From contig NZ_CP014578.1 in the NCBI RefSeq assembly GCF_001634365.1, positions 3,782,001 to 3,846,000 of the forward strand: a stretch of 64,000 bases of DNA, written 5' to 3'. Both the position numbers and the translations under genes were made by a program. Source of the DNA: Paraburkholderia phytofirmans OLGA172. Its GTDB lineage: Bacteria > Pseudomonadota > Gammaproteobacteria > Burkholderiales > Burkholderiaceae. The notes beneath the pieces were generated by a model that did not search any database, was not told where the DNA came from, and saw only the letters and a program-made list of their open reading frames with translations. This document shows, in pieces, positions 52,336 through 59,701 of the stretch (position 1 is its first letter; every line of letters starts with the position of its first letter).

Positions 52336-52732
52336 GCGGCTCTTTGCCTTTTACTCTGGGAGAGGCATTGACTTCGTTCGCGCGCTGCATGGTGACTTGA
52401 AGACGCATCGGCTCAAATGTAAAGATTGGTTATAATTCGCGCGTTTAGCTTGTGTGGTTGCCCGTCTTAAAAAACGGTTGGGTTAGATTTCTATTTGCCG
52501 CTGGATAAAGCGGCCGGGTGTGAGAGCCCGAAGCGTAAAACCGCACTACCTGCGAAAGTGGGTAGTGCACAACCATGCACGTCTGTTTCTATGGGCGGGC
52601 TGTGGTGAGGGAGCCGCGAGGCTCGCCGGTTTTGGTTTTACGCCCGGTCTCTCAAACTCGCTACGTGCCCGCTCACCCCAGCTGTTAGTCGGCGAGTATC
52701 GGGTAATTCAGGAATCCACCGGAAATCTCACC
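52336..52732 (+). ncRNA. Structured RNA leader resembling phage C4 antisense RNA
   Basis: 397 bases without a protein gene. After a TATAAT at 52431-52436, the transcript would hold a closed domain. The outer stem is GCGTAAAACC (52533-52542) with GGTTTTACGC (52634-52643), a perfect 10 bp. Inside are hairpins CACTACC/GGTAGTG (52544-52550, 52561-52567), GTGCA/TGCAC and GAGCC-GCGA-GGCTC (52611-52624), and outside TGAGAG/CTCTCA. This order, including the ACCGCACTA... and GGGCGG-CTGTGGTGAGGG elements, is that of leaders ahead of Icd/Ash-type prophage genes controlled by C4 antisense RNA (P1/P7). Match is from memory and by eye. Confidence 0.55.
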
Positions 52733-53212
52733 ATGAGCAAACCCGCTAAAGAGAATCAAACTGCAACACGCCCGCCTGTTGATGCGCTCCAGTACGAAAA
52801 ACTTGCACTGTCGGCGTTTGGAGCATGCGACCGGCAAATCCGGCAGCTTGAAACACTAATTAATCTCGCGGCGAGCATCGCCCGAAGCCCGGCTACGACG
52901 GTTGAGGAAAGACGCCGTGAGCGCAACCTGCTGGAACACCTGCTCTATACCGTCGAGCAATACCAGCAGGAAGCTGAATGCGACCGCGATCTGTACCAGG
53001 TGATCGCGCTCGACGCGAAGGGGGTTCCCCACAGTCGCATCACGGCCAAACTTGCGGCGCAACTTCTTTCAGATGCTGCGCAGGCAGGACGAGAAGCAGC
53101 CGAAACCGAAGCTGAAGCTGCGCCGGACAAAGCTGTGACGCGCAAGCAGGAGCGTGTGAGGACTGCTGCGTGTGCGCGCGCAGATGCGAAGCAGGCGGCA
53201 ATGAAGCACTAG
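52733..53212 (+). CDS. Unknown helical protein behind the C4-like leader
   Basis: 159 residues from ATG 52733, with CCGGAAA upstream. Mostly helical and charged: YEKLALSAFGACDRQIRQLE, VEERRRERNLLEHLLYTVEQ, QEAECDRDLYQVIALDAKGV; the C-terminal 50 residues are Ala/Glu/Lys-rich (AAETEAEAAPDKAVTRKQER). No signal peptide or membrane segment. I do not recognise the family. The leader is like those of prophage genes that inhibit host division (Icd-like), which suggests a phage-satellite origin, but no integrase, capsid or other phage gene is nearby. Confidence 0.65.
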   Translation: MSKPAKENQTATRPPVDALQYEKLALSAFGACDRQIRQLETLINLAASIARSPATTVEERRRERNLLEHLLYTVEQYQQEAECDRDLYQVIALDAKGVPHSRITAKLAAQLLSDAAQAGREAAETEAEAAPDKAVTRKQERVRTAACARADAKQAAMKH

Positions 53213-53334: not shown

Positions 53335-53589
53335 TTATCGATTACCTTTCTTCTTTGACGGAGGGTTCATGTCCAAGCCTTCCGGAGCCAGACAAGGGTG
53401 TTCCAACCACAGTTCCCGAAGTACATACGCAAATAGGTACCCCATAGCCTTACCGGTTCCAGCACGGAAGGCTTTGAATTCATCATCGGAACAGCGTTGT
53501 TGAACCAGCGCGATAGATTCGTCCATCAGACGCGTTGCCGCCAGAAGACGGTCGCTGACCTCTGCGGCCACATCATTGTCACCAATCAC
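53335..53589 (-). CDS. Small RHS-linked paralog 1 (putative immunity family)
   Basis: 84 residues from GTG 53589, after AAGGGAG; the open frame begins at 53625 with another GTG. Helical core AAEVSDRLLAATRLMDESIA, LVQQRCSDDEFKAFRAGTGK, LWLEHPCLAPEGLDMNPPSK and a basic end KKKGNR. It shares with four upstream genes the pattern (A/T)xE(V/L)...LLxA, ....C/GS..E...FR...G...G.L, and LW...P.LA. Last of five tandem paralogs after the RHS gene. No known family recognised; immunity role is inferred from context. Confidence 0.7.
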   Translation of the reverse strand: MIGDNDVAAEVSDRLLAATRLMDESIALVQQRCSDDEFKAFRAGTGKAMGYLFAYVLRELWLEHPCLAPEGLDMNPPSKKKGNR

Positions 53590-53693
53590 CACATTCTCCC
53601 TTAAGAGTCGTTGTCCACTTTGCACGTTTCAAACCTGCGCCCACCTAGGCTAAAACAATAGAAAGGCGCGATTGCTTGCGCCTTGTGTGCGTC

Positions 53694-53966
53694 TTATCGC
53701 TTAGCTTTCTTCGTCGGCGGGGGGCTCATATCCAGCCCCTCCAGCGCGAGTTCGGGACGCGCTTGCCACAGCGGCCTTAGGAGAAAACCATATAGATGCC
53801 CTGCAGCATTCGCGGCTCCAGCACGAAATGCTTGAATTTCTCGCTTGGAGCCCCGCTCCTCAGCAAGTCTCAGGGCATTAACAATCGAGTAATGTGCTGA
53901 CAGCAATTTCTCGTTGACCTCTGTCGCAAGTTTCTTTTCCTCAATCAAGATGTTGTTCCTTAGCAT
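53694..53966 (-). CDS. Small RHS-linked paralog 2 (putative immunity family)
   Basis: 90 residues from ATG 53966 (MLRNNILIEEKKLATEVNEK). By analogy with the others, which start just after CTAAGGA, a TTG at 53948 could be the real start. Core LATEVNEKLLSAHYSIVNAL, EIQAFRAGAANAAGHLYGFL, LRPLWQARPELALEGLDMSP, and tail TKKAKR. The most divergent copy (the conserved Cys is Gly). A decayed RHS-tip fragment lies upstream (54119-54202), so the pair looks like an old tip/immunity module. Confidence 0.68.
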   Translation of the reverse strand: MLRNNILIEEKKLATEVNEKLLSAHYSIVNALRLAEERGSKREIQAFRAGAANAAGHLYGFLLRPLWQARPELALEGLDMSPPPTKKAKR

Positions 53967-54118
53967 CCTTGTCTGCCATGTTCGCATTCTTGCATGTGAA
54001 GAATGCAACTCAATAGTCGGCATTTGGCGATAGATCGCTCATGAATTGCGGCACAGCGCTTCGTTATCGATTAGCCGCACGCGCACTTGAGTAAGCTCGG
54101 ATCAAAACGGCCGTTTTC

Positions 54119-54202
54119 CGAAATAGTTGGACAGGTACCCTCGCACGTTTCGATTGGCCGCTCTGATCGAGCATCAGGTAGGGAACGGCACCTGTTGCTG
54201 GT
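54119..54202 (-). pseudogene. Decayed RHS C-terminal tip fragment, relic 2
   Basis: Minus-strand reading DQSGQSKRARVPVQLFRKT aligns with PEQNGQSKRAILYAQLFQNT of the intact RHS C-terminus (55760-55840), and a frame-shifted QVPFP matches the residues just before it. No open frame spans it. It lies between paralogs 3 and 2. Confidence 0.75.
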
Positions 54203-54215
54203 GTCTTCTTTATTG

Positions 54216-54470
54216 CTACCGCCTAGCCTTTTTCTTCCGCCTGGTCATTTCGAGACCAGCGGGAGCAAGATCTGGATATGCTCTCCACAGGGGTTCAAGC
54301 AGCAGGTACAGACCGCCCGCGACTCTGCCGGCCTCAGAGCGAAAGCACTCAAATTCCTTCCTTGAGCACTTTTCTTGAATTATTTTTGTCGCTTTTTCGA
54401 CAGACAAATACGCGTCTAATAACTGCTCGCATACTTCCGAAGTCACGTCCTTGTCTATTTCCTTATCCAC
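54216..54470 (-). CDS. Small RHS-linked paralog 3 (putative immunity family)
   Basis: 84 residues from GTG 54470 with CTAAGGATAGGAAA upstream. The open frame reaches 54593, but those extra codons are the decayed RHS tip read in another frame, so the inner GTG is preferred. Core VTSEVCEQLLDAYLSVEKAT, EKCSRKEFECFRSEAGRVAG, GLYLLLEPLWRAYPDLAPAG, tail RRKKKARR. Same pattern as the other four copies; closest to paralogs 4 and 5. Confidence 0.72.
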   Translation of the reverse strand: MDKEIDKDVTSEVCEQLLDAYLSVEKATKIIQEKCSRKEFECFRSEAGRVAGGLYLLLEPLWRAYPDLAPAGLEMTRRKKKARR

Positions 54471-54513
54471 TTTCCTATCCTTAGCAGGATTGATCGACCT
54501 TTCACTTGTTTTT

Positions 54514-54620
54514 TCACCTATCACGCACTTCTCGATGGTGCTTCGTGGCTGGCTGGCCATAACTACAGTTGACGAAACCAGCTTTCGACTCACCGTTGTT
54601 CACTTCTCGCCCTGTTCCGC
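54514..54620 (-). pseudogene. Decayed RHS C-terminal tip fragment, relic 1
   Basis: Minus strand reads NNGESKAGFVNCSYGQPATK then HHREVRDR and a stop at 54514-54516. The intact RHS end reads NTGDADAGFVKCSYGRPATK then RCREVRERC, so the match is close and in frame over about 28 residues. It is truncated on both sides and sits directly before paralog 3. Confidence 0.82.
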
Positions 54621-54718
54621 ACTCCCGTCCCCCTCGCAGTCTCCATCGAATTGATGCTGCCTCTGAATCGACGGAACAGGAAAGAAGCGCCCCTGATTAC
54701 TAGCGCTTTTCCAATATC

Positions 54719-54967
54719 TTACGACCCTTCCTTCGATGGCAAGGTGGCTTGATCAGGTTTCGGAGGTGCGAGGTCTGGGTATGCTTTCCATAACGGTCCA
54801 AGAAGCAGGTACAAGCTTCCTGCCACCTTTCCCGCTTCAGCGCGAAATGCTACAAATTCCTCATCAGAGCATTGCTCTTGAACTAACCGGATCGCGTTCT
54901 CCACCGAGCAAAACGCGGCAAATAGTTGCTTGCTAACCTCCGACGCCACAGCCTTGTCTTTGTCCAC
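54719..54967 (-). CDS. Small RHS-linked paralog 4 (putative immunity family)
   Basis: 82 residues from GTG 54967 (ribosome site TTAAGGAGAG). Core VASEVSKQLFAAFCSVENAI, RLVQEQCSDEEFVAFRAEAG, KVAGSLYLLLGPLWKAYPDL, ending PSKEGS without the Lys/Arg tail of the others. No signal peptide, so cytoplasmic, as expected for immunity to a toxin acting inside cells. Confidence 0.72.
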   Translation of the reverse strand: MDKDKAVASEVSKQLFAAFCSVENAIRLVQEQCSDEEFVAFRAEAGKVAGSLYLLLGPLWKAYPDLAPPKPDQATLPSKEGS

Positions 54968-55112
54968 AGATACTCTCCTTAACAGTCTTGATCAGCTTTA
55001 CACTGATCTAGGCAATTGAAATAGTTCAAGCCATTGTTTCAGATTGGAGTGGGGAGTTTTTGATCAGTACATTTAATTTGATATCTTTCATGTACTTCTC
55101 AGCATCGCCTGG

Positions 55113-55241
55113 TTATGGACTTACCAATAGTCGCGCACTTGCTCCGCACACAGGCGAGAAGGCAAGCACGATGCAGGCGGCAACGGTGCCGGCAATTGCC
55201 TCGACAATAGCGAACATGACGAACGCCGCTAGCATTTTCAT
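55113..55241 (-). CDS. Possible 42-residue membrane peptide
   Basis: From ATG 55241: MKMLAAFVMFAIVEAIAGTV then AACIVLAFSPVCGASARLLV. Two hydrophobic stretches separated by a Glu could span the membrane. No good ribosome site. It may be an old signal-anchor piece or chance. Confidence 0.3.
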   Translation of the reverse strand: MKMLAAFVMFAIVEAIAGTVAACIVLAFSPVCGASARLLVSP

Positions 55242-55278
55242 TTTATTGGCCAAAATAATGTCTGCTCTAATTTGCGCT

Positions 55279-55309
55279 AAAGAAGGCGCGAATTACTCGC
55301 GCCTTCTTT
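55279..55309. terminator. Terminator after paralog 5
   Basis: Perfect 12-bp stem AAAGAAGGCGCG (55279-55290) with CGCGCCTTCTTT (55298-55309), 7-base loop; A/T ends suit either direction. It would end the rhs-paralog 5 transcript. A shorter similar hairpin (GGCGC...GCGCC near 53664-53682) follows paralog 2. Confidence 0.8.
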
Positions 55310-55314
55310 ATGTG

Positions 55315-55560
55315 TTACCGCTTGCCCTTTCTCTTCTTAGGTGGATTTACGATAACCCCTGCGGGCGCCAAGTCCGGATAGTCCTCCCAGAGAGGCAGCA
55401 AGAGCAGACTTATGCCACCCGCCACTCTTCCGGCTTCAGTGCGAAAGAACTCAAATTCCTCCACCGAGCAGCGCTCCTGAACGAGCCTGATTGAATCCTC
55501 AACCAACCGAAAGGCATCGCGCAGTAGTCTGTCAAGTTCCGTGGCAATTTCTTTATTCAT
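55315..55560 (-). CDS. Small RHS-linked paralog 5, cognate partner of the RHS protein (putative immunity)
   Basis: 81 residues from ATG 55560 (MNKEIATELDRLLRDAFRLV), ribosome site CTAAGGAAAC. It begins nine bases after the RHS stop, so it is co-translated with it; cognate immunity genes take this position in RHS and CDI systems. Core EDSIRLVQERCSVEEFEFFR, TEAGRVAGGISLLLLPLWED, YPDLAPAGVIVNP, basic tail KKRKGKR. Confidence 0.78.
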   Translation of the reverse strand: MNKEIATELDRLLRDAFRLVEDSIRLVQERCSVEEFEFFRTEAGRVAGGISLLLLPLWEDYPDLAPAGVIVNPPKKRKGKR

Positions 55561-55569
55561 TGTGTTTCC

Positions 55570-57939
55570 TTAGCAGCCGTTATCAGCCAAGCACATGGTG
55601 AAACATTTGTGGAAGTTTCGCCCGTCGTTTGTCGCTGGGGTCGGCAGCGTCTGCATCGTGCATTTGTCGATACACCTTTCACGCACCTCTCGACAACGTT
55701 TCGTCGCGGGTCTGCCATAACTGCACTTAACGAAACCCGCATCGGCGTCGCCGGTGTTCTGGAACAGTTGAGCGTATAGGATCGCGCGTTTCGACTGGCC
55801 ATTCTGCTCGGGTATAAGAATAGGAAACGGCACCTGCTCCTGCGCCGCTATTTGCAATTCGGGCACGTCACCCCGAACAGGCTGACCTGTCTGGGTGATG
55901 GTAAGTCCGCGATAAAAGAGCTTCCATGCCAGCTTGGCCTTCGTGAAAACATAACACTCCGCGCATACCGGTGTGATTGTCGCTGGGGCGTCCGCCTTTA
56001 GATATCTACGCGAGCCAGAGAGATTGGCGGGGGGGCCGACCGGATCAGCACCGATCTCGTAGTTGCTAATCCACTGGTCTATCTCATCGCCAGTGATCGG
56101 TTGTGCCGTCCCGCCATTCCTGGCTACCGTGCCCGTCCGACCCGCCACACGACCATCAGGGGTATAGGTGTAGTCCACAGCCAGGAAGCGCTTCAGACCC
56201 GCCGTCAGTGCAGTCGCATCTTCGTTGTAGGTGAACCGGCTGACGCGTCCACGTTTGTCATACGTGAAGCGTGCTTCACGATAGTTCCCGGTAGCTCTCG
56301 TTACACGGTTCGACGCGTCGCGATCGACTGCACCAAGTAGCCACCGTGAGATCAATTCCTGAGCGGTCTGCAGGTTCCCAGTTTCGTCTGGGAAATACAC
56401 CCAATCTTCGGTTTTGACACCATTCACATAGACGGTTGCCTGCGCCAAGCGGTTATTGGCATCGTAGCGCGCGCCGACAGTCAACTTGTTGCCTGTGCTA
56501 GCAGCGTCGAAGCCGCTAGCGCCTGTTGTGTCAGACGTGTCGAATTCGCTGTATCCAGTGACGTTGCCACCTGCGTCATACACGAACGCACGCATCTTGC
56601 CGGGGGTTGCAACAAGTGACGGATGCAGGCTCGTCGCATCGGCATAGCGCACTGACGTTATCACCGTGCCACTAGGGCTAGTCACCGCAGCGCGAACCGG
56701 TCGGCCTGCAGCGTCGTACGAATATGCCGCGCTTCCGTCCGGTGCGGTTTTTTGCAGCAAATTCCCGCTCGTGTCCAACGTCCGACTCTCGACGCCATCA
56801 GCAGTACTGCCACCGGTCATGCGTAACATGCCCGCGACTGACGCAAAGTTAACCGTGCCCGAACCGTCCGCCCAGGACATGGTCGTTGAACCGTTGCCGT
56901 AGGCGAATCGGACGTTCTGCGTCGTATCCGGATGCGTTGCCGAGGTAGCACGTCCTCTCGCATCATAGGTCCACGTCGCAATCCGTGAGCCGGATTCGTC
57001 AATCACACCCGTTAGTGCGTTCTTGAAGCGCGAGTCGTCGTAGACGTAACGCCGCACGTAACCATCGGGCCATGTGACCGACACGAGGTTGCTGCTCCCG
57101 TCATAACCGTATTGCGTAAGACCGCCGCTTGGGTCTGTCATGCGGTAAATACGGCCTGACGTGTCGTACTCAAGCTTGATCGACAATAACTCATACTTCG
57201 GAACCGCACCTGCCGCGCGCTGGTTGATGGCCGTGAGCCGCCCCGCGCCGTCATAGGTGAGCGTTCGGGTGAAACCGGTATGCGGTGTTTCGGACAGCAG
57301 GACGCCCTGTGCTGAATACGACTCAACGGTGTCTGTCGTTAGGTCTGTCAAAGCCCATCCAGAGCCATTCTGGGCGAGAGCGAGACCACTGAAGCTGGAT
57401 GTTTTCCACTGTCCGTTGGTAAACAGGAAAGTGAGCGGTTGGCCGTTTGCACGATAGGCAATGACTTTGGGTGAACTACCGCTGGTCCCGGCCACGTTGA
57501 GTTGTCGCTGCCAGTTACTCATCCATACCGGTCCCATGGCGGTCGCCGATTTGAGAAACGGTGAGGATAAGTAGCTTCGAGTGAATGTCAGCGGCACTCC
57601 ATCGCCGCTACGGAAGTCGTTTTCGGAGAGCGTCACCTTGCCGTTGGCCGGATAGACCGGATCGGCAACCGGACAAGATTCGTCATGGTCCGTCGGCGTG
57701 GCGCACCACTCGTCAATCGCTGCCATGTCGTTTCTACATCCGAAACTACCCATACCGCTTGGGGTATTGCTTGCGACGTCCAGTCGGCAGCTCGCTGTAC
57801 CCGGCGTCGCACCTGACTTCGAATAAAGCGTCCAGCAGTCGTCTGCACGCGCGGTTGAAGCCATTAGTAGCAAAGCACCCGCGACCACTAGACGGGCTAA
57901 CTTGTCTCCAAGCCCGCAAGATGGGATTTTTATTCTCAT
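55570..57939 (-). CDS. Secreted RHS/YD-repeat protein with cysteine-rich C-terminal tip
   Basis: 789 residues. Sec signal peptide (LVVAGALLLMASTARA, cut near 32). DUF6531-like start NGKVTLSENDFRSGDGVPLT followed by about a dozen YD repeats (LTYDGAGRLTAINQR, YGYDGSSNLVSVTWPDGYVR, AYSYDAAGRPVRAA, FTYDKRGRVSRFTYN). The usual RHS core end (PxxxxDPxGL) is absent; from about 645 a distinct tip follows with nine Cys (PVCAEC, VKCSYG, KRCREVRERCIDKC, HKC, MC, NGC). No PAAR or VgrG partner. Lower GC than neighbours. The ribosome site GGGAG precedes ATG 57939. It heads the five-paralog row. A contact toxin is likely; no catalytic motif was recognised in the tip. Confidence 0.85.
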   Translation of the reverse strand: MRIKIPSCGLGDKLARLVVAGALLLMASTARADDCWTLYSKSGATPGTASCRLDVASNTPSGMGSFGCRNDMAAIDEWCATPTDHDESCPVADPVYPANGKVTLSENDFRSGDGVPLTFTRSYLSSPFLKSATAMGPVWMSNWQRQLNVAGTSGSSPKVIAYRANGQPLTFLFTNGQWKTSSFSGLALAQNGSGWALTDLTTDTVESYSAQGVLLSETPHTGFTRTLTYDGAGRLTAINQRAAGAVPKYELLSIKLEYDTSGRIYRMTDPSGGLTQYGYDGSSNLVSVTWPDGYVRRYVYDDSRFKNALTGVIDESGSRIATWTYDARGRATSATHPDTTQNVRFAYGNGSTTMSWADGSGTVNFASVAGMLRMTGGSTADGVESRTLDTSGNLLQKTAPDGSAAYSYDAAGRPVRAAVTSPSGTVITSVRYADATSLHPSLVATPGKMRAFVYDAGGNVTGYSEFDTSDTTGASGFDAASTGNKLTVGARYDANNRLAQATVYVNGVKTEDWVYFPDETGNLQTAQELISRWLLGAVDRDASNRVTRATGNYREARFTYDKRGRVSRFTYNEDATALTAGLKRFLAVDYTYTPDGRVAGRTGTVARNGGTAQPITGDEIDQWISNYEIGADPVGPPANLSGSRRYLKADAPATITPVCAECYVFTKAKLAWKLFYRGLTITQTGQPVRGDVPELQIAAQEQVPFPILIPEQNGQSKRAILYAQLFQNTGDADAGFVKCSYGRPATKRCREVRERCIDKCTMQTLPTPATNDGRNFHKCFTMCLADNGC

Positions 57940-58430: not shown

Positions 58431-59135
58431 TTAAAACGGTCTCATCACGGGGCTACCCTTCGCCGAAGTGAAATAGGTATCGACGACCTGATAGAAGCCC
58501 ATCTGCGAATCGGCAACTTCCCATACGGCGAGAATTACCTGATAGCCGCTGCGATTCGGCAACTGACATTGATGAATCGTCGGCTGAGGGGGCTGAAGGT
58601 TGGCTTGCCAATAGGGTTGTCCGTTGTTCTGGTACATGCAGAACGGCTTTTCTTCGAACTGCGCTCGCGTGAGAGGTTTGGCCGGATTCCAGTCTGAACG
58701 CGTGATGAAGTAGTTCCAGCGCCGCGTCGCGTGCAACGCTGCATAGTCCCACCTGAAGGTCTGCAGCGAATTGGCCCGCATCGGAATCTTGGTCCATCGG
58801 TCTGCAGACTGTTCATTCAGCACCGGAACGTTCCCATTGACGCTCGAGCCGGCGATCTCGCCATCCTTCGGCGGCAGTGCGTTCCGAACGTCCTGGGGCG
58901 CGAAAGAATCCGGCAGGCCCGCCTGCGTAGCGGGAAAGAATTTGCCATTCTCCATGGCGTTTGCCTGCCACGCTTCGACATTGCAATTTGAATTCTTTTT
59001 CGCCGCACACAACACGATACGGGAGGCAGGTTCGGTCAGACGCCCATGAGCGTGAACGAGGGTGGCGCCGAATAGCGCAACTAGCGCGAAAGCCAGATGG
59101 CGTTTGGTGAATGAGCGATGCGTGCTTTTGTACAT
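58431..59135 (-). CDS. AA10 lytic polysaccharide monooxygenase (chitin-binding type)
   Basis: 234 residues from ATG 59135 (ribosome site GGAGAA). Signal peptide 1-29 ending LVHA; the mature protein begins with His30 (HGRLTEPASR), which with His135 (ALHATRRWNYFITRSDWNP) forms the copper histidine brace. Copper enzyme secreted to oxidise chitin or cellulose chains. Further AA10 signatures: GKFFPATQAGLPDSF, NGQPYWQANLQPPQP, GYQVILAVWEVADSQMGFYQ with late aromatic VVDTYF. Single domain with no extra binding module. Confidence 0.93.
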   Translation of the reverse strand: MYKSTHRSFTKRHLAFALVALFGATLVHAHGRLTEPASRIVLCAAKKNSNCNVEAWQANAMENGKFFPATQAGLPDSFAPQDVRNALPPKDGEIAGSSVNGNVPVLNEQSADRWTKIPMRANSLQTFRWDYAALHATRRWNYFITRSDWNPAKPLTRAQFEEKPFCMYQNNGQPYWQANLQPPQPTIHQCQLPNRSGYQVILAVWEVADSQMGFYQVVDTYFTSAKGSPVMRPF

Positions 59136-59701
59136 GATTGATTCTCCATAACATCCCTCGCCTATCACGCAATGCGATCTGCGAAGCGCGGCAAGGAAAA
59201 GCGTTGGACTACTATCGAACAGGATCTGCAACGAAGCCCCTGCGCAAAGGTGAACGAACCAGTGATCCTTCTGAAGATCCGACGGTGATGCGAGGTCCGA
59301 CATGGGTGCGCCAATCGCAAAGTGCTAAATTGTTCGCCCTTCTGCCGACCTCAAGGTCAAAGCTAACGCAGCCGGCAAAATGTGCGTCTGAGAAACATCT
59401 CAAAATTTGGCGCCGGCATCGGCGGCACGATCTGACTCACACCTCGCAGACGGTCAACTGCGCATGCAAGCGAAACTCGCTGCTGTGGCCCATGTGCAGC
59501 GTTGTAGCGGCCTCGATGGCCCGCATCACACGTGACCGCTCGTCACGTCCCCGCCTCGAGCGCGAAAAACATGACCGTCGATGCCGCGACCGCGATGGGA
59601 TTCGACGAATGGTCGCACGCGGCATTCGGAGGCAGCCGTTCGCGAATACCGACCGCAAAATGAACAAGGGAGCAACGAAACGGATTTAAGTGGGGAATGA
59701 T
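59136..59701. other. 566-base gap upstream of the response regulator
   Basis: No supported gene. A 30-codon reading at 59571-59663 (MTVDAATAMGFDEWSHAAFG) resembles the N-terminus of IS4/Tn5-type transposases (DEW..AAFG) and may be a relic; this is a weak match. A longer plus-strand reading (59138-59689) has random composition. Confidence 0.4.

What the first reader, a model, noticed from the sequence alone, without database searches (positions are those of the whole stretch)
53335..57939. RHS protein followed by five paralogous small genes with two decayed RHS-tip copies between them
On the minus strand the order is rhs, paralog 5 (nine bases later), paralog 4, tip relic 1, paralog 3, tip relic 2, paralog 2, paralog 1. 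The relics match the intact C-terminus in protein sequence (GFVNCSYGQPATK against GFVKCSYGRPATK; GQSKRA in both). RHS and CDI loci are known to gain new tip/immunity pairs by displacing older ones downstream; here the displaced tips are homologous to the present tip, so the locus seems to have diversified one toxin-immunity family in place and kept the immunity genes while the tips decayed. The small family is not one I can name.
Basis: partly seen in the sequence, partly recalled or inferred. Interest (0 to 1): 0.85.

Follow-up and report, generated by a model that had tools for sequence, protein, structure and literature searches.

The report
Toxin-fossil array of RHS immunity genes
A bacterium carries one apparently intact toxin-like gene followed by five related probable protection genes, three of them still sitting next to the decayed stump of a toxin tail, so the locus reads like a layered record of past rounds of bacterial warfare.

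Summary
An RHS protein (789 aa, signal-peptide-like N-terminus) ends in a 125-aa tip whose last ~50 residues form a cysteine-rich tail. Nine bases later comes the first of five homologous ~82-aa genes (family F1, unnamed). Three fossil tails, not two, lie upstream of paralogs 4, 3 and 2; upstream of paralog 1 none is significant. In 144 Paraburkholderia genomes, 21 of 22 matches that reach the end of this tail have F1 directly downstream. A second tail class on the same chassis is followed by an unrelated small family (F2), also in arrays with fossils. Tail and F1 identity correlate independently of the core. F1 genes, orphans included, evolve under purifying selection, and 10 of 28 orphans keep a fossil tail, mostly of the type that fits. 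Paralogs 1, 2, 3 and 5 have closer relatives in other species than in this array, so it grew by serial displacement by imported tail-immunity cassettes, not by diversification in place. Sequential displacement is known from Vibrio cholerae T6SS. New here: two unnamed immunity-like families, two strictly patterned cysteine tails on a non-PAAR RHS chassis, and fossil pairing. Toxicity, export and binding are untested.

The parts
55570..57939 (-). RHS/YD-repeat protein, 789 aa: signal-peptide-like N-terminus, DUF6531, RHS repeats, variable tip
   Evidence: RHS_repeat E 1.6e-25, DUF6531 E 9.7e-11; signal peptide read by eye, no predictor run
55729..55947 (-). tip, conserved middle part (MID, residues 665-737), shared with class B loci at 37-45% identity over about 60 residues
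55570..55728 (-). tip, variable cysteine-rich tail (residues 738-789, 7 Cys: C-x9-C-x6-C-x3-C-x18-C-x3-C-x5-C) and stop
55315..55560 (-). paralog 5 (F1 family), next to the present tip, 81 aa, predicted two-helix hairpin
55278..55310 (-). 14-bp hairpin resembling an intrinsic terminator directly after paralog 5
   Evidence: -23 kcal/mol, z -6.3, 0 of 200 shuffles fold as well; not listed by the consensus scan
   Evidence: score 170, null max 44
54719..54967 (-). paralog 4 (F1), GTG start
54499..54600 (-). fossil tail upstream of paralog 3
   Evidence: score 106, null max 56
54216..54467 (-). paralog 3 (F1), start inferred from relatives
54014..54183 (-). fossil tip (MID and tail, in different frames) upstream of paralog 2
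   Evidence: score 100, null max 49
53694..53948 (-). paralog 2 (F1), TTG start inferred from relatives
53335..53589 (-). paralog 1 (F1), GTG start inferred from relatives; no significant fossil tail upstream

Best explanation
The locus is a polymorphic toxin/immunity site. An RHS protein, exported by Sec (inferred from its N-terminus), carries a C-terminal tip of which the ~50-residue cysteine-rich tail sets specificity, and the small gene immediately downstream encodes the cognate, cytoplasmic immunity protein (inferred from position, co-variation and retention). New tail-plus-immunity cassettes from other strains recombine into the 3' end of rhs and replace the old tip; the old tail stump and its immunity gene are pushed downstream. 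Tails then decay, while immunity genes are kept under selection, presumably because they still protect against relatives that carry the matching tail. The window shows one live pair and four displaced units, three of them with recognisable stumps.
For: Searching with the tip alone, 22 matches in 144 genomes reach the tail end (query residue 161 or more), and 21 of them have an F1 gene directly downstream in the independent F1 search (searches compared by eye; 3 of the 21 are fossils). Class B tails are followed at once by F2 in 19 of 19 distinct fetched loci. Over 16 tip/F1 pairs tail and F1 identity correlate (r 0.83; partial r 0.80 given the core; 0 of 5000 permutations reach either), while core versus F1 given the tail is -0.16; it also holds inside the 7 closer pairs (0.89, 5 of 5000) and the other 9 (0.74, 2 of 5000). 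Cassette exchange is visible: against the window G043 has 92% core, 54% tail, 50% F1 identity, G005 76%, 83%, 78%. 10 of 28 orphan F1 genes keep a tail stump above all 100 shuffles; of the 9 with a defined type 7 best match a tail paired with that type in relatives. dN/dS is 0.04-0.24 in the 15 of 18 comparisons with unsaturated dS. At the same kynB-TDO site relatives hold RHS+3, RHS+1, or 3, 2, 1 and 1 F1 genes without an RHS gene found beside them. The same chassis elsewhere carries other tips followed by Imm8 (E 1.5e-35) or DUF6984 (E 5.7e-12).
Against: No toxicity, export or binding data. The tip has no family in Pfam (as part of the RHS protein) and no PDB sequence match. A ~50-residue tail is small for a toxin domain, and the RHS model has low confidence (mean pLDDT 48). 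18 of 28 orphan F1 genes have no stump above their shuffles. The stump upstream of paralog 3 scores slightly better against the present tip (106) than against the tail paired with type 3 (99), and that of paralog 2 fits type 2 only with the longer stretch (100 against 90; best match is type 3). One class A-like tip (G104:C257, L107) and the truncated tip of G124 have no F1 gene beside them.
Confidence: 0.83

Rival explanations
1. Tandem duplication and divergence in place of one immunity gene (with tail end) produced the array.
For: All five are homologous and in one orientation; a duplicated unit of tail end plus gene would leave similar stumps; the stump upstream of paralog 3 is closest to the present tip.
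Against: Paralogs 1, 2, 3 and 5 have closer relatives in other species than in the array (groups with 100/99, 100/93, 96/89 and 100/99 support); the best-preserved stump (upstream of paralog 4) matches G043's tail (170) better than the present one (134).
Confidence: 0.07
2. F1 is not immunity but an accessory of the RHS protein (export chaperone, folding partner or regulator).
For: Small helical proteins encoded next to an exported protein can be chaperones; paralog 5 is a predicted two-helix hairpin.
Against: F1 persists under purifying selection away from an intact RHS gene; its type follows the tail rather than the core; an unrelated family F2 takes its place when the tail class changes.
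Confidence: 0.06
3. Orphan F1 genes were domesticated for another role, such as regulation or an intracellular toxin-antitoxin function, and their retention says nothing about defence.
For: Five of six diverged F1 copies found in another genus of the family sit behind a tautomerase-like gene (read and named by eye).
Against: One of those five and the sixth copy still show a tail stump by eye; in Paraburkholderia many orphans remain at RHS sites and keep types that match tails in circulation.
Confidence: 0.1

Closest known systems
Immunity gene arrays by sequential displacement of T6SS effectors in Vibrio cholerae (PMC5361080; passages seen)
   Same: Live effector/immunity pair followed by orphan immunity genes; in one described step the 3' end of an older effector is shifted back; alleles of one genome do not cluster together.
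   Different: Those arrays belong to T6SS clusters; here the chassis is an RHS protein with a signal-peptide-like N-terminus, the array holds one homologous family, and three stumps remain.
Polyimmunity loci (PMC3482391; passages, and section 39)
   Same: Tandem paralogous immunity-like genes in one orientation, suggested there to cover foreign toxins.
   Different: That section says the genes are never interrupted by toxin genes or cassettes; here fossil tails lie between genes and an intact RHS gene heads the array.
Bacterial teneurin-like YD-shell proteins with immunity genes (PMC13018210; passages seen)
   Same: YD-repeat chassis, some with predicted signal peptides, short C-terminal toxin domain, immunity gene in the same operon, a disulfide in one C-terminal domain.
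   Different: The example discussed has more than 2200 residues; the C-terminal domains named there are others; immunity arrays were not in the passages seen.
Orphan rhs toxins in Salmonella (PMC3967940; title and start of abstract in a listing) and esaG/tsaI/tipC immunity strings (PMC9484751; abstract and outline)
   Same: Orphan rhs tips, or strings of non-identical immunity paralogues.
   Different: Different families and secretion routes; esaG copy changes are ascribed there to recombination between tandem paralogues.

Membership tests
RHS polymorphic toxin system | RHS/YD-repeat chassis | tested here: met
   RHS_repeat E 1.6e-25, DUF6531 E 9.7e-11
RHS polymorphic toxin system | conserved chassis with exchangeable C-terminal tips | tested here: met
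   same chassis with tail classes A and B and several other tips
RHS polymorphic toxin system | tip-specific gene immediately downstream | tested here: met
   21 of 22 matches that reach the class A tail end; 19 of 19 distinct fetched class B loci
RHS polymorphic toxin system | tip is toxic and the neighbour protects | not testable with these tools
   needs expression assays
RHS polymorphic toxin system | autocleavage site at the end of the RHS core | tested here: inconclusive
   a DPVGPP stretch precedes the tip and is partly conserved, but no cleavage motif was tested formally
T6SS-delivered RHS effector | PAAR domain at the N-terminus | tested here: not met
   Pfam and NCBIfam show only RHS/YD repeats and DUF6531 above cut-off
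Sequential-displacement immunity array (V. cholerae kind) | displaced immunity genes closer to other strains' genes than to each other | tested here: met
   for paralogs 1, 2 and 3 (and the live paralog 5); paralog 4 has no close relative
Sequential-displacement immunity array (V. cholerae kind) | 3' remnants of displaced effectors next to immunity genes | tested here: met
   3 of 4 displaced units of the window, 10 of 28 orphans in all
Sequential-displacement immunity array (V. cholerae kind) | located in a T6SS cluster | tested here: inconclusive
   neighbours read by eye are kynB, TDO, a hypothetical gene and sugar-metabolism genes, plus an LPMO gene; the rest of the window was not annotated
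Polyimmunity locus (Zhang et al. 2012 description) | no intervening toxin genes or cassettes | tested here: not met
   fossil tails between genes and an intact RHS gene at the head

The most novel reading that the evidence does not exclude
The specificity module of these proteins is a new kind of polymorphic effector: a ~50-residue, disulfide-locked helical hairpin on an exported mini-RHS, existing in at least two frameworks (class A with paired C-x3-C, class B with paired C-x10-C), each opposed by its own unnamed cytoplasmic immunity family, with genomes keeping libraries of outdated immunity genes whose fossil tails record which attack each one answered.
Probability: 0.35. Interest if true: 0.75.

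Novelty: new variant of a known kind. Interest (0 to 1): 0.57.

Why it matters
It adds two unnamed immunity-like families and two tail classes to polymorphic toxins. Because stumps still lie next to their genes, one can ask directly which orphan immunity gene answered which tail, and whether keeping it still pays. I did not check how often published arrays keep such stumps.

Tried and rejected

Structure of the RHS protein: mean pLDDT 48, so no fold search was made; the helical hairpin in the tail (pLDDT blocks of 49-74) is only a hint.

A fossil upstream of paralog 1: not significant (162 of 200 shuffles; 80 of 100); by eye a short C-x5-S-stop resembles the tail end, suggestive only. Promoter and terminator scans did not exceed shuffles (4 against a mean of 2.8; 6 against 5.3). 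Of five folds after the genes, the one after paralog 5 stands out (z -6.3); after paralogs 3 and 2 they are moderate (3 and 4 of 200 shuffles fold as well), after 4 and 1 weak (22 and 10 of 200).

In-place duplication was set aside on the tree, which has few columns: 17 of 43 inner branches reach its star level. Three of 18 dN/dS pairs were saturated. In one search six F1 rows ran past their own stop through my coordinates; one search repeats the test with these cut and gives nearly the same figures, which the report uses. One search shows F1 beside 18 of 19 class A tips, but 32 of its 40 loci were fetched because they hold F1, so I rely instead. Of the tip matches I fetched only part (and the automatic loci); class B counts are for those. 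The family-wide searches scored 13 candidates a genome, so their counts are lower bounds. In one search the control stretch downstream scored 42 or less in 24 of 28 cases; the other four (90-222) overlap another unit's stump.

In print: searches of the held library listed nothing that by title or abstract start describes these two families; this covers only that library and those terms.
Full report
Observation. Reading the minus strand confirms an RHS gene (55570-57939), then five homologous small genes. They share 39-51% identity with paralog 5 and match nothing useful in Pfam or NCBIfam (54 aligned rows). Three stretches between them resemble the tip: upstream of paralog 4 (54982-55140), paralog 3 (54499-54600) and paralog 2 (54014-54183). 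Their scores (170, 106, 100) were reached by 0 of 200 dinucleotide shuffles each; upstream of paralog 1 nothing significant was found (162 of 200 shuffles reach the score). The scores fall with distance from rhs, which suits successive displacement, though the stretches also differ in length.

Anatomy of the tip. The window lies in an 8.57-Mb genome; named relatives of its proteins are mostly Paraburkholderia, so I call the genus that. Alignment of 17 RHS relatives and of tips across loci divides the tip into a conserved middle part and a variable tail. All 17 class A tails printed (the broken ones of L070 and L076 were left out) have seven cysteines with spacing x(5 or 9), 6, 3, 15-18, 3, 5. 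Of 21 class B rows 20 have five with spacing 9 or 12, 10, 14-23, 10; the remaining row looks frameshifted, and three of the places appear twice among the 21. The N-terminus of the RHS protein looks like a Sec signal peptide; the paralogs show none (both by eye).

Linkage. In 144 genomes of the genus F1 occurs in 24, and the tip query, which includes 40 residues of the core, in 42. Of the 22 matches that reach query residue 161 or more, 21 have an F1 match directly downstream; three of the 21 are fossils, and the exception is G104:C257, a class A-like variant (L107). Class B tails on the same chassis are followed by an unrelated family, F2, in 19 of 19 distinct fetched loci, often in arrays with class B tail stumps; one such array of three units is in the window's own genome (L101). 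F2 has no Pfam match in 14 of 14 rows. F2 occurs in at least 68 of 398 sampled genomes of the family, 7 of 25 genera; F1 in at least 11 of 398, 2 of 25 genera. Of 21 further loci inspected for other tips, two are class B-like or class A-like variants and 19 carry other tips. Of four downstream genes scanned from these, one is Imm8 (E 1.5e-35), one DUF6984 (E 5.7e-12) and two have no family. So by gene organisation the chassis is a polymorphic toxin chassis.

Co-variation. For 16 tip/F1 pairs tail and F1 identity correlate at 0.83 (partial 0.80 given the core; 0 of 5000 permutations for each). Inside the 7 closer class A pairs the values are 0.89 (5 of 5000) and 0.89 (11 of 5000); inside the other 9, 0.74 (2 of 5000) and 0.74 (2 of 5000) (which mends the ends of six F1 rows). 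Against the window, G043 has 92% core, 54% tail and 50% F1 identity, G005 76%, 83% and 78%: core and cassette have different histories.

History. In the tree of 46 F1 sequences paralog 1 groups with G055 and G037, paralog 2 with G055, G037, G087 and G124, paralog 3 with G043, G090, G105, G016, G142 and G065, and paralog 5 with G005 and G124; paralog 4 stands alone on a long branch. In G037 a type-2 gene is next to the intact tip, in G043 a type-3 gene, in G005 a type-5 gene. Thus the array collects types that are current elsewhere. Types were assigned by eye from the tree.

Retention. dN/dS is 0.11 and 0.18 for paralog 1 against its two relatives, 0.10-0.24 for paralog 2 (four comparisons), 0.10-0.13 for paralog 3 where dS is not saturated (three of five), 0.12 for paralog 4 against G043 (dS 2.4, rough) and 0.09 for paralog 5 (simple counting method on about 80 codons). 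Paralog 1's type is not next to a tip in any of the three species in which it was found. At the kynB-TDO site six relatives hold RHS plus three F1 (G037), RHS plus one (G043), three F1 (G055), two (G087), one with a tail stump (G074) and one (G127). In G065 and G105 an N-terminal RHS remnant lies directly before an orphan F1 gene. Of 28 orphan F1 genes taken from the fetched loci, 10 have a stump above all 100 shuffles. Leaving out paralog 4 (no type), 7 of 9 best match a tail paired with their own type; paralog 2 does so only with the longer stretch (100 against 90), and paralog 3 does not (106 against 99).

Mechanism. Shown: linkage, co-variation, exchange, stumps, retention. Inferred: export by Sec, disulfides, toxicity, immunity, and protection against relatives. 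Paralog 5 is predicted as a two-helix hairpin (pLDDT 91.6); the RHS model is too weak to use. A strong terminator-like hairpin follows paralog 5, so the orphan genes may need their own promoters; the promoter scan did not exceed chance.

Comparison. The displacement model was proposed for V. cholerae T6SS arrays (PMC5361080, passages). Polyimmunity loci as described by Zhang et al. are not interrupted by toxin cassettes (PMC3482391, section 39), so this is not a member, though it may work like one. YD-shell toxins with signal peptides and immunity genes are known (PMC13018210, passages). I therefore rate the locus as a new variant of a known kind.

Noticed in passing
L101 (G000:C2:2986435-2998851): The same genome holds a second array: class B tip followed by three F2 genes with class B tail stumps between them.
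   Followed up: partly
L131-L136 (another genus of the same family): Diverged F1 copies; five of six sit behind a tautomerase-like gene, and L131 and L133 show a tail stump by eye. Possible domesticated immunity genes.
   Followed up: partly
window 52520-53212 (+): 230-aa protein without a significant family hit between TDO and the array, also found at five of the six syntenic sites in relatives.
   Followed up: no
L105, L110, L112, L124: Same chassis with another tip; the downstream gene of L105 is DUF6984, and the others look alike by eye. DUF6984 may be an immunity family.
   Followed up: partly
L076 (G124:C2:2926799-2944958): Orphan type-5 gene with tail stump; its protein is 99% identical to the one next to the intact tip in G005, suggesting recent transfer.
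   Followed up: partly
window 58431-59303 (-): Lytic polysaccharide monooxygenase (LPMO_10, E 6.8e-35) upstream of rhs.
   Followed up: no
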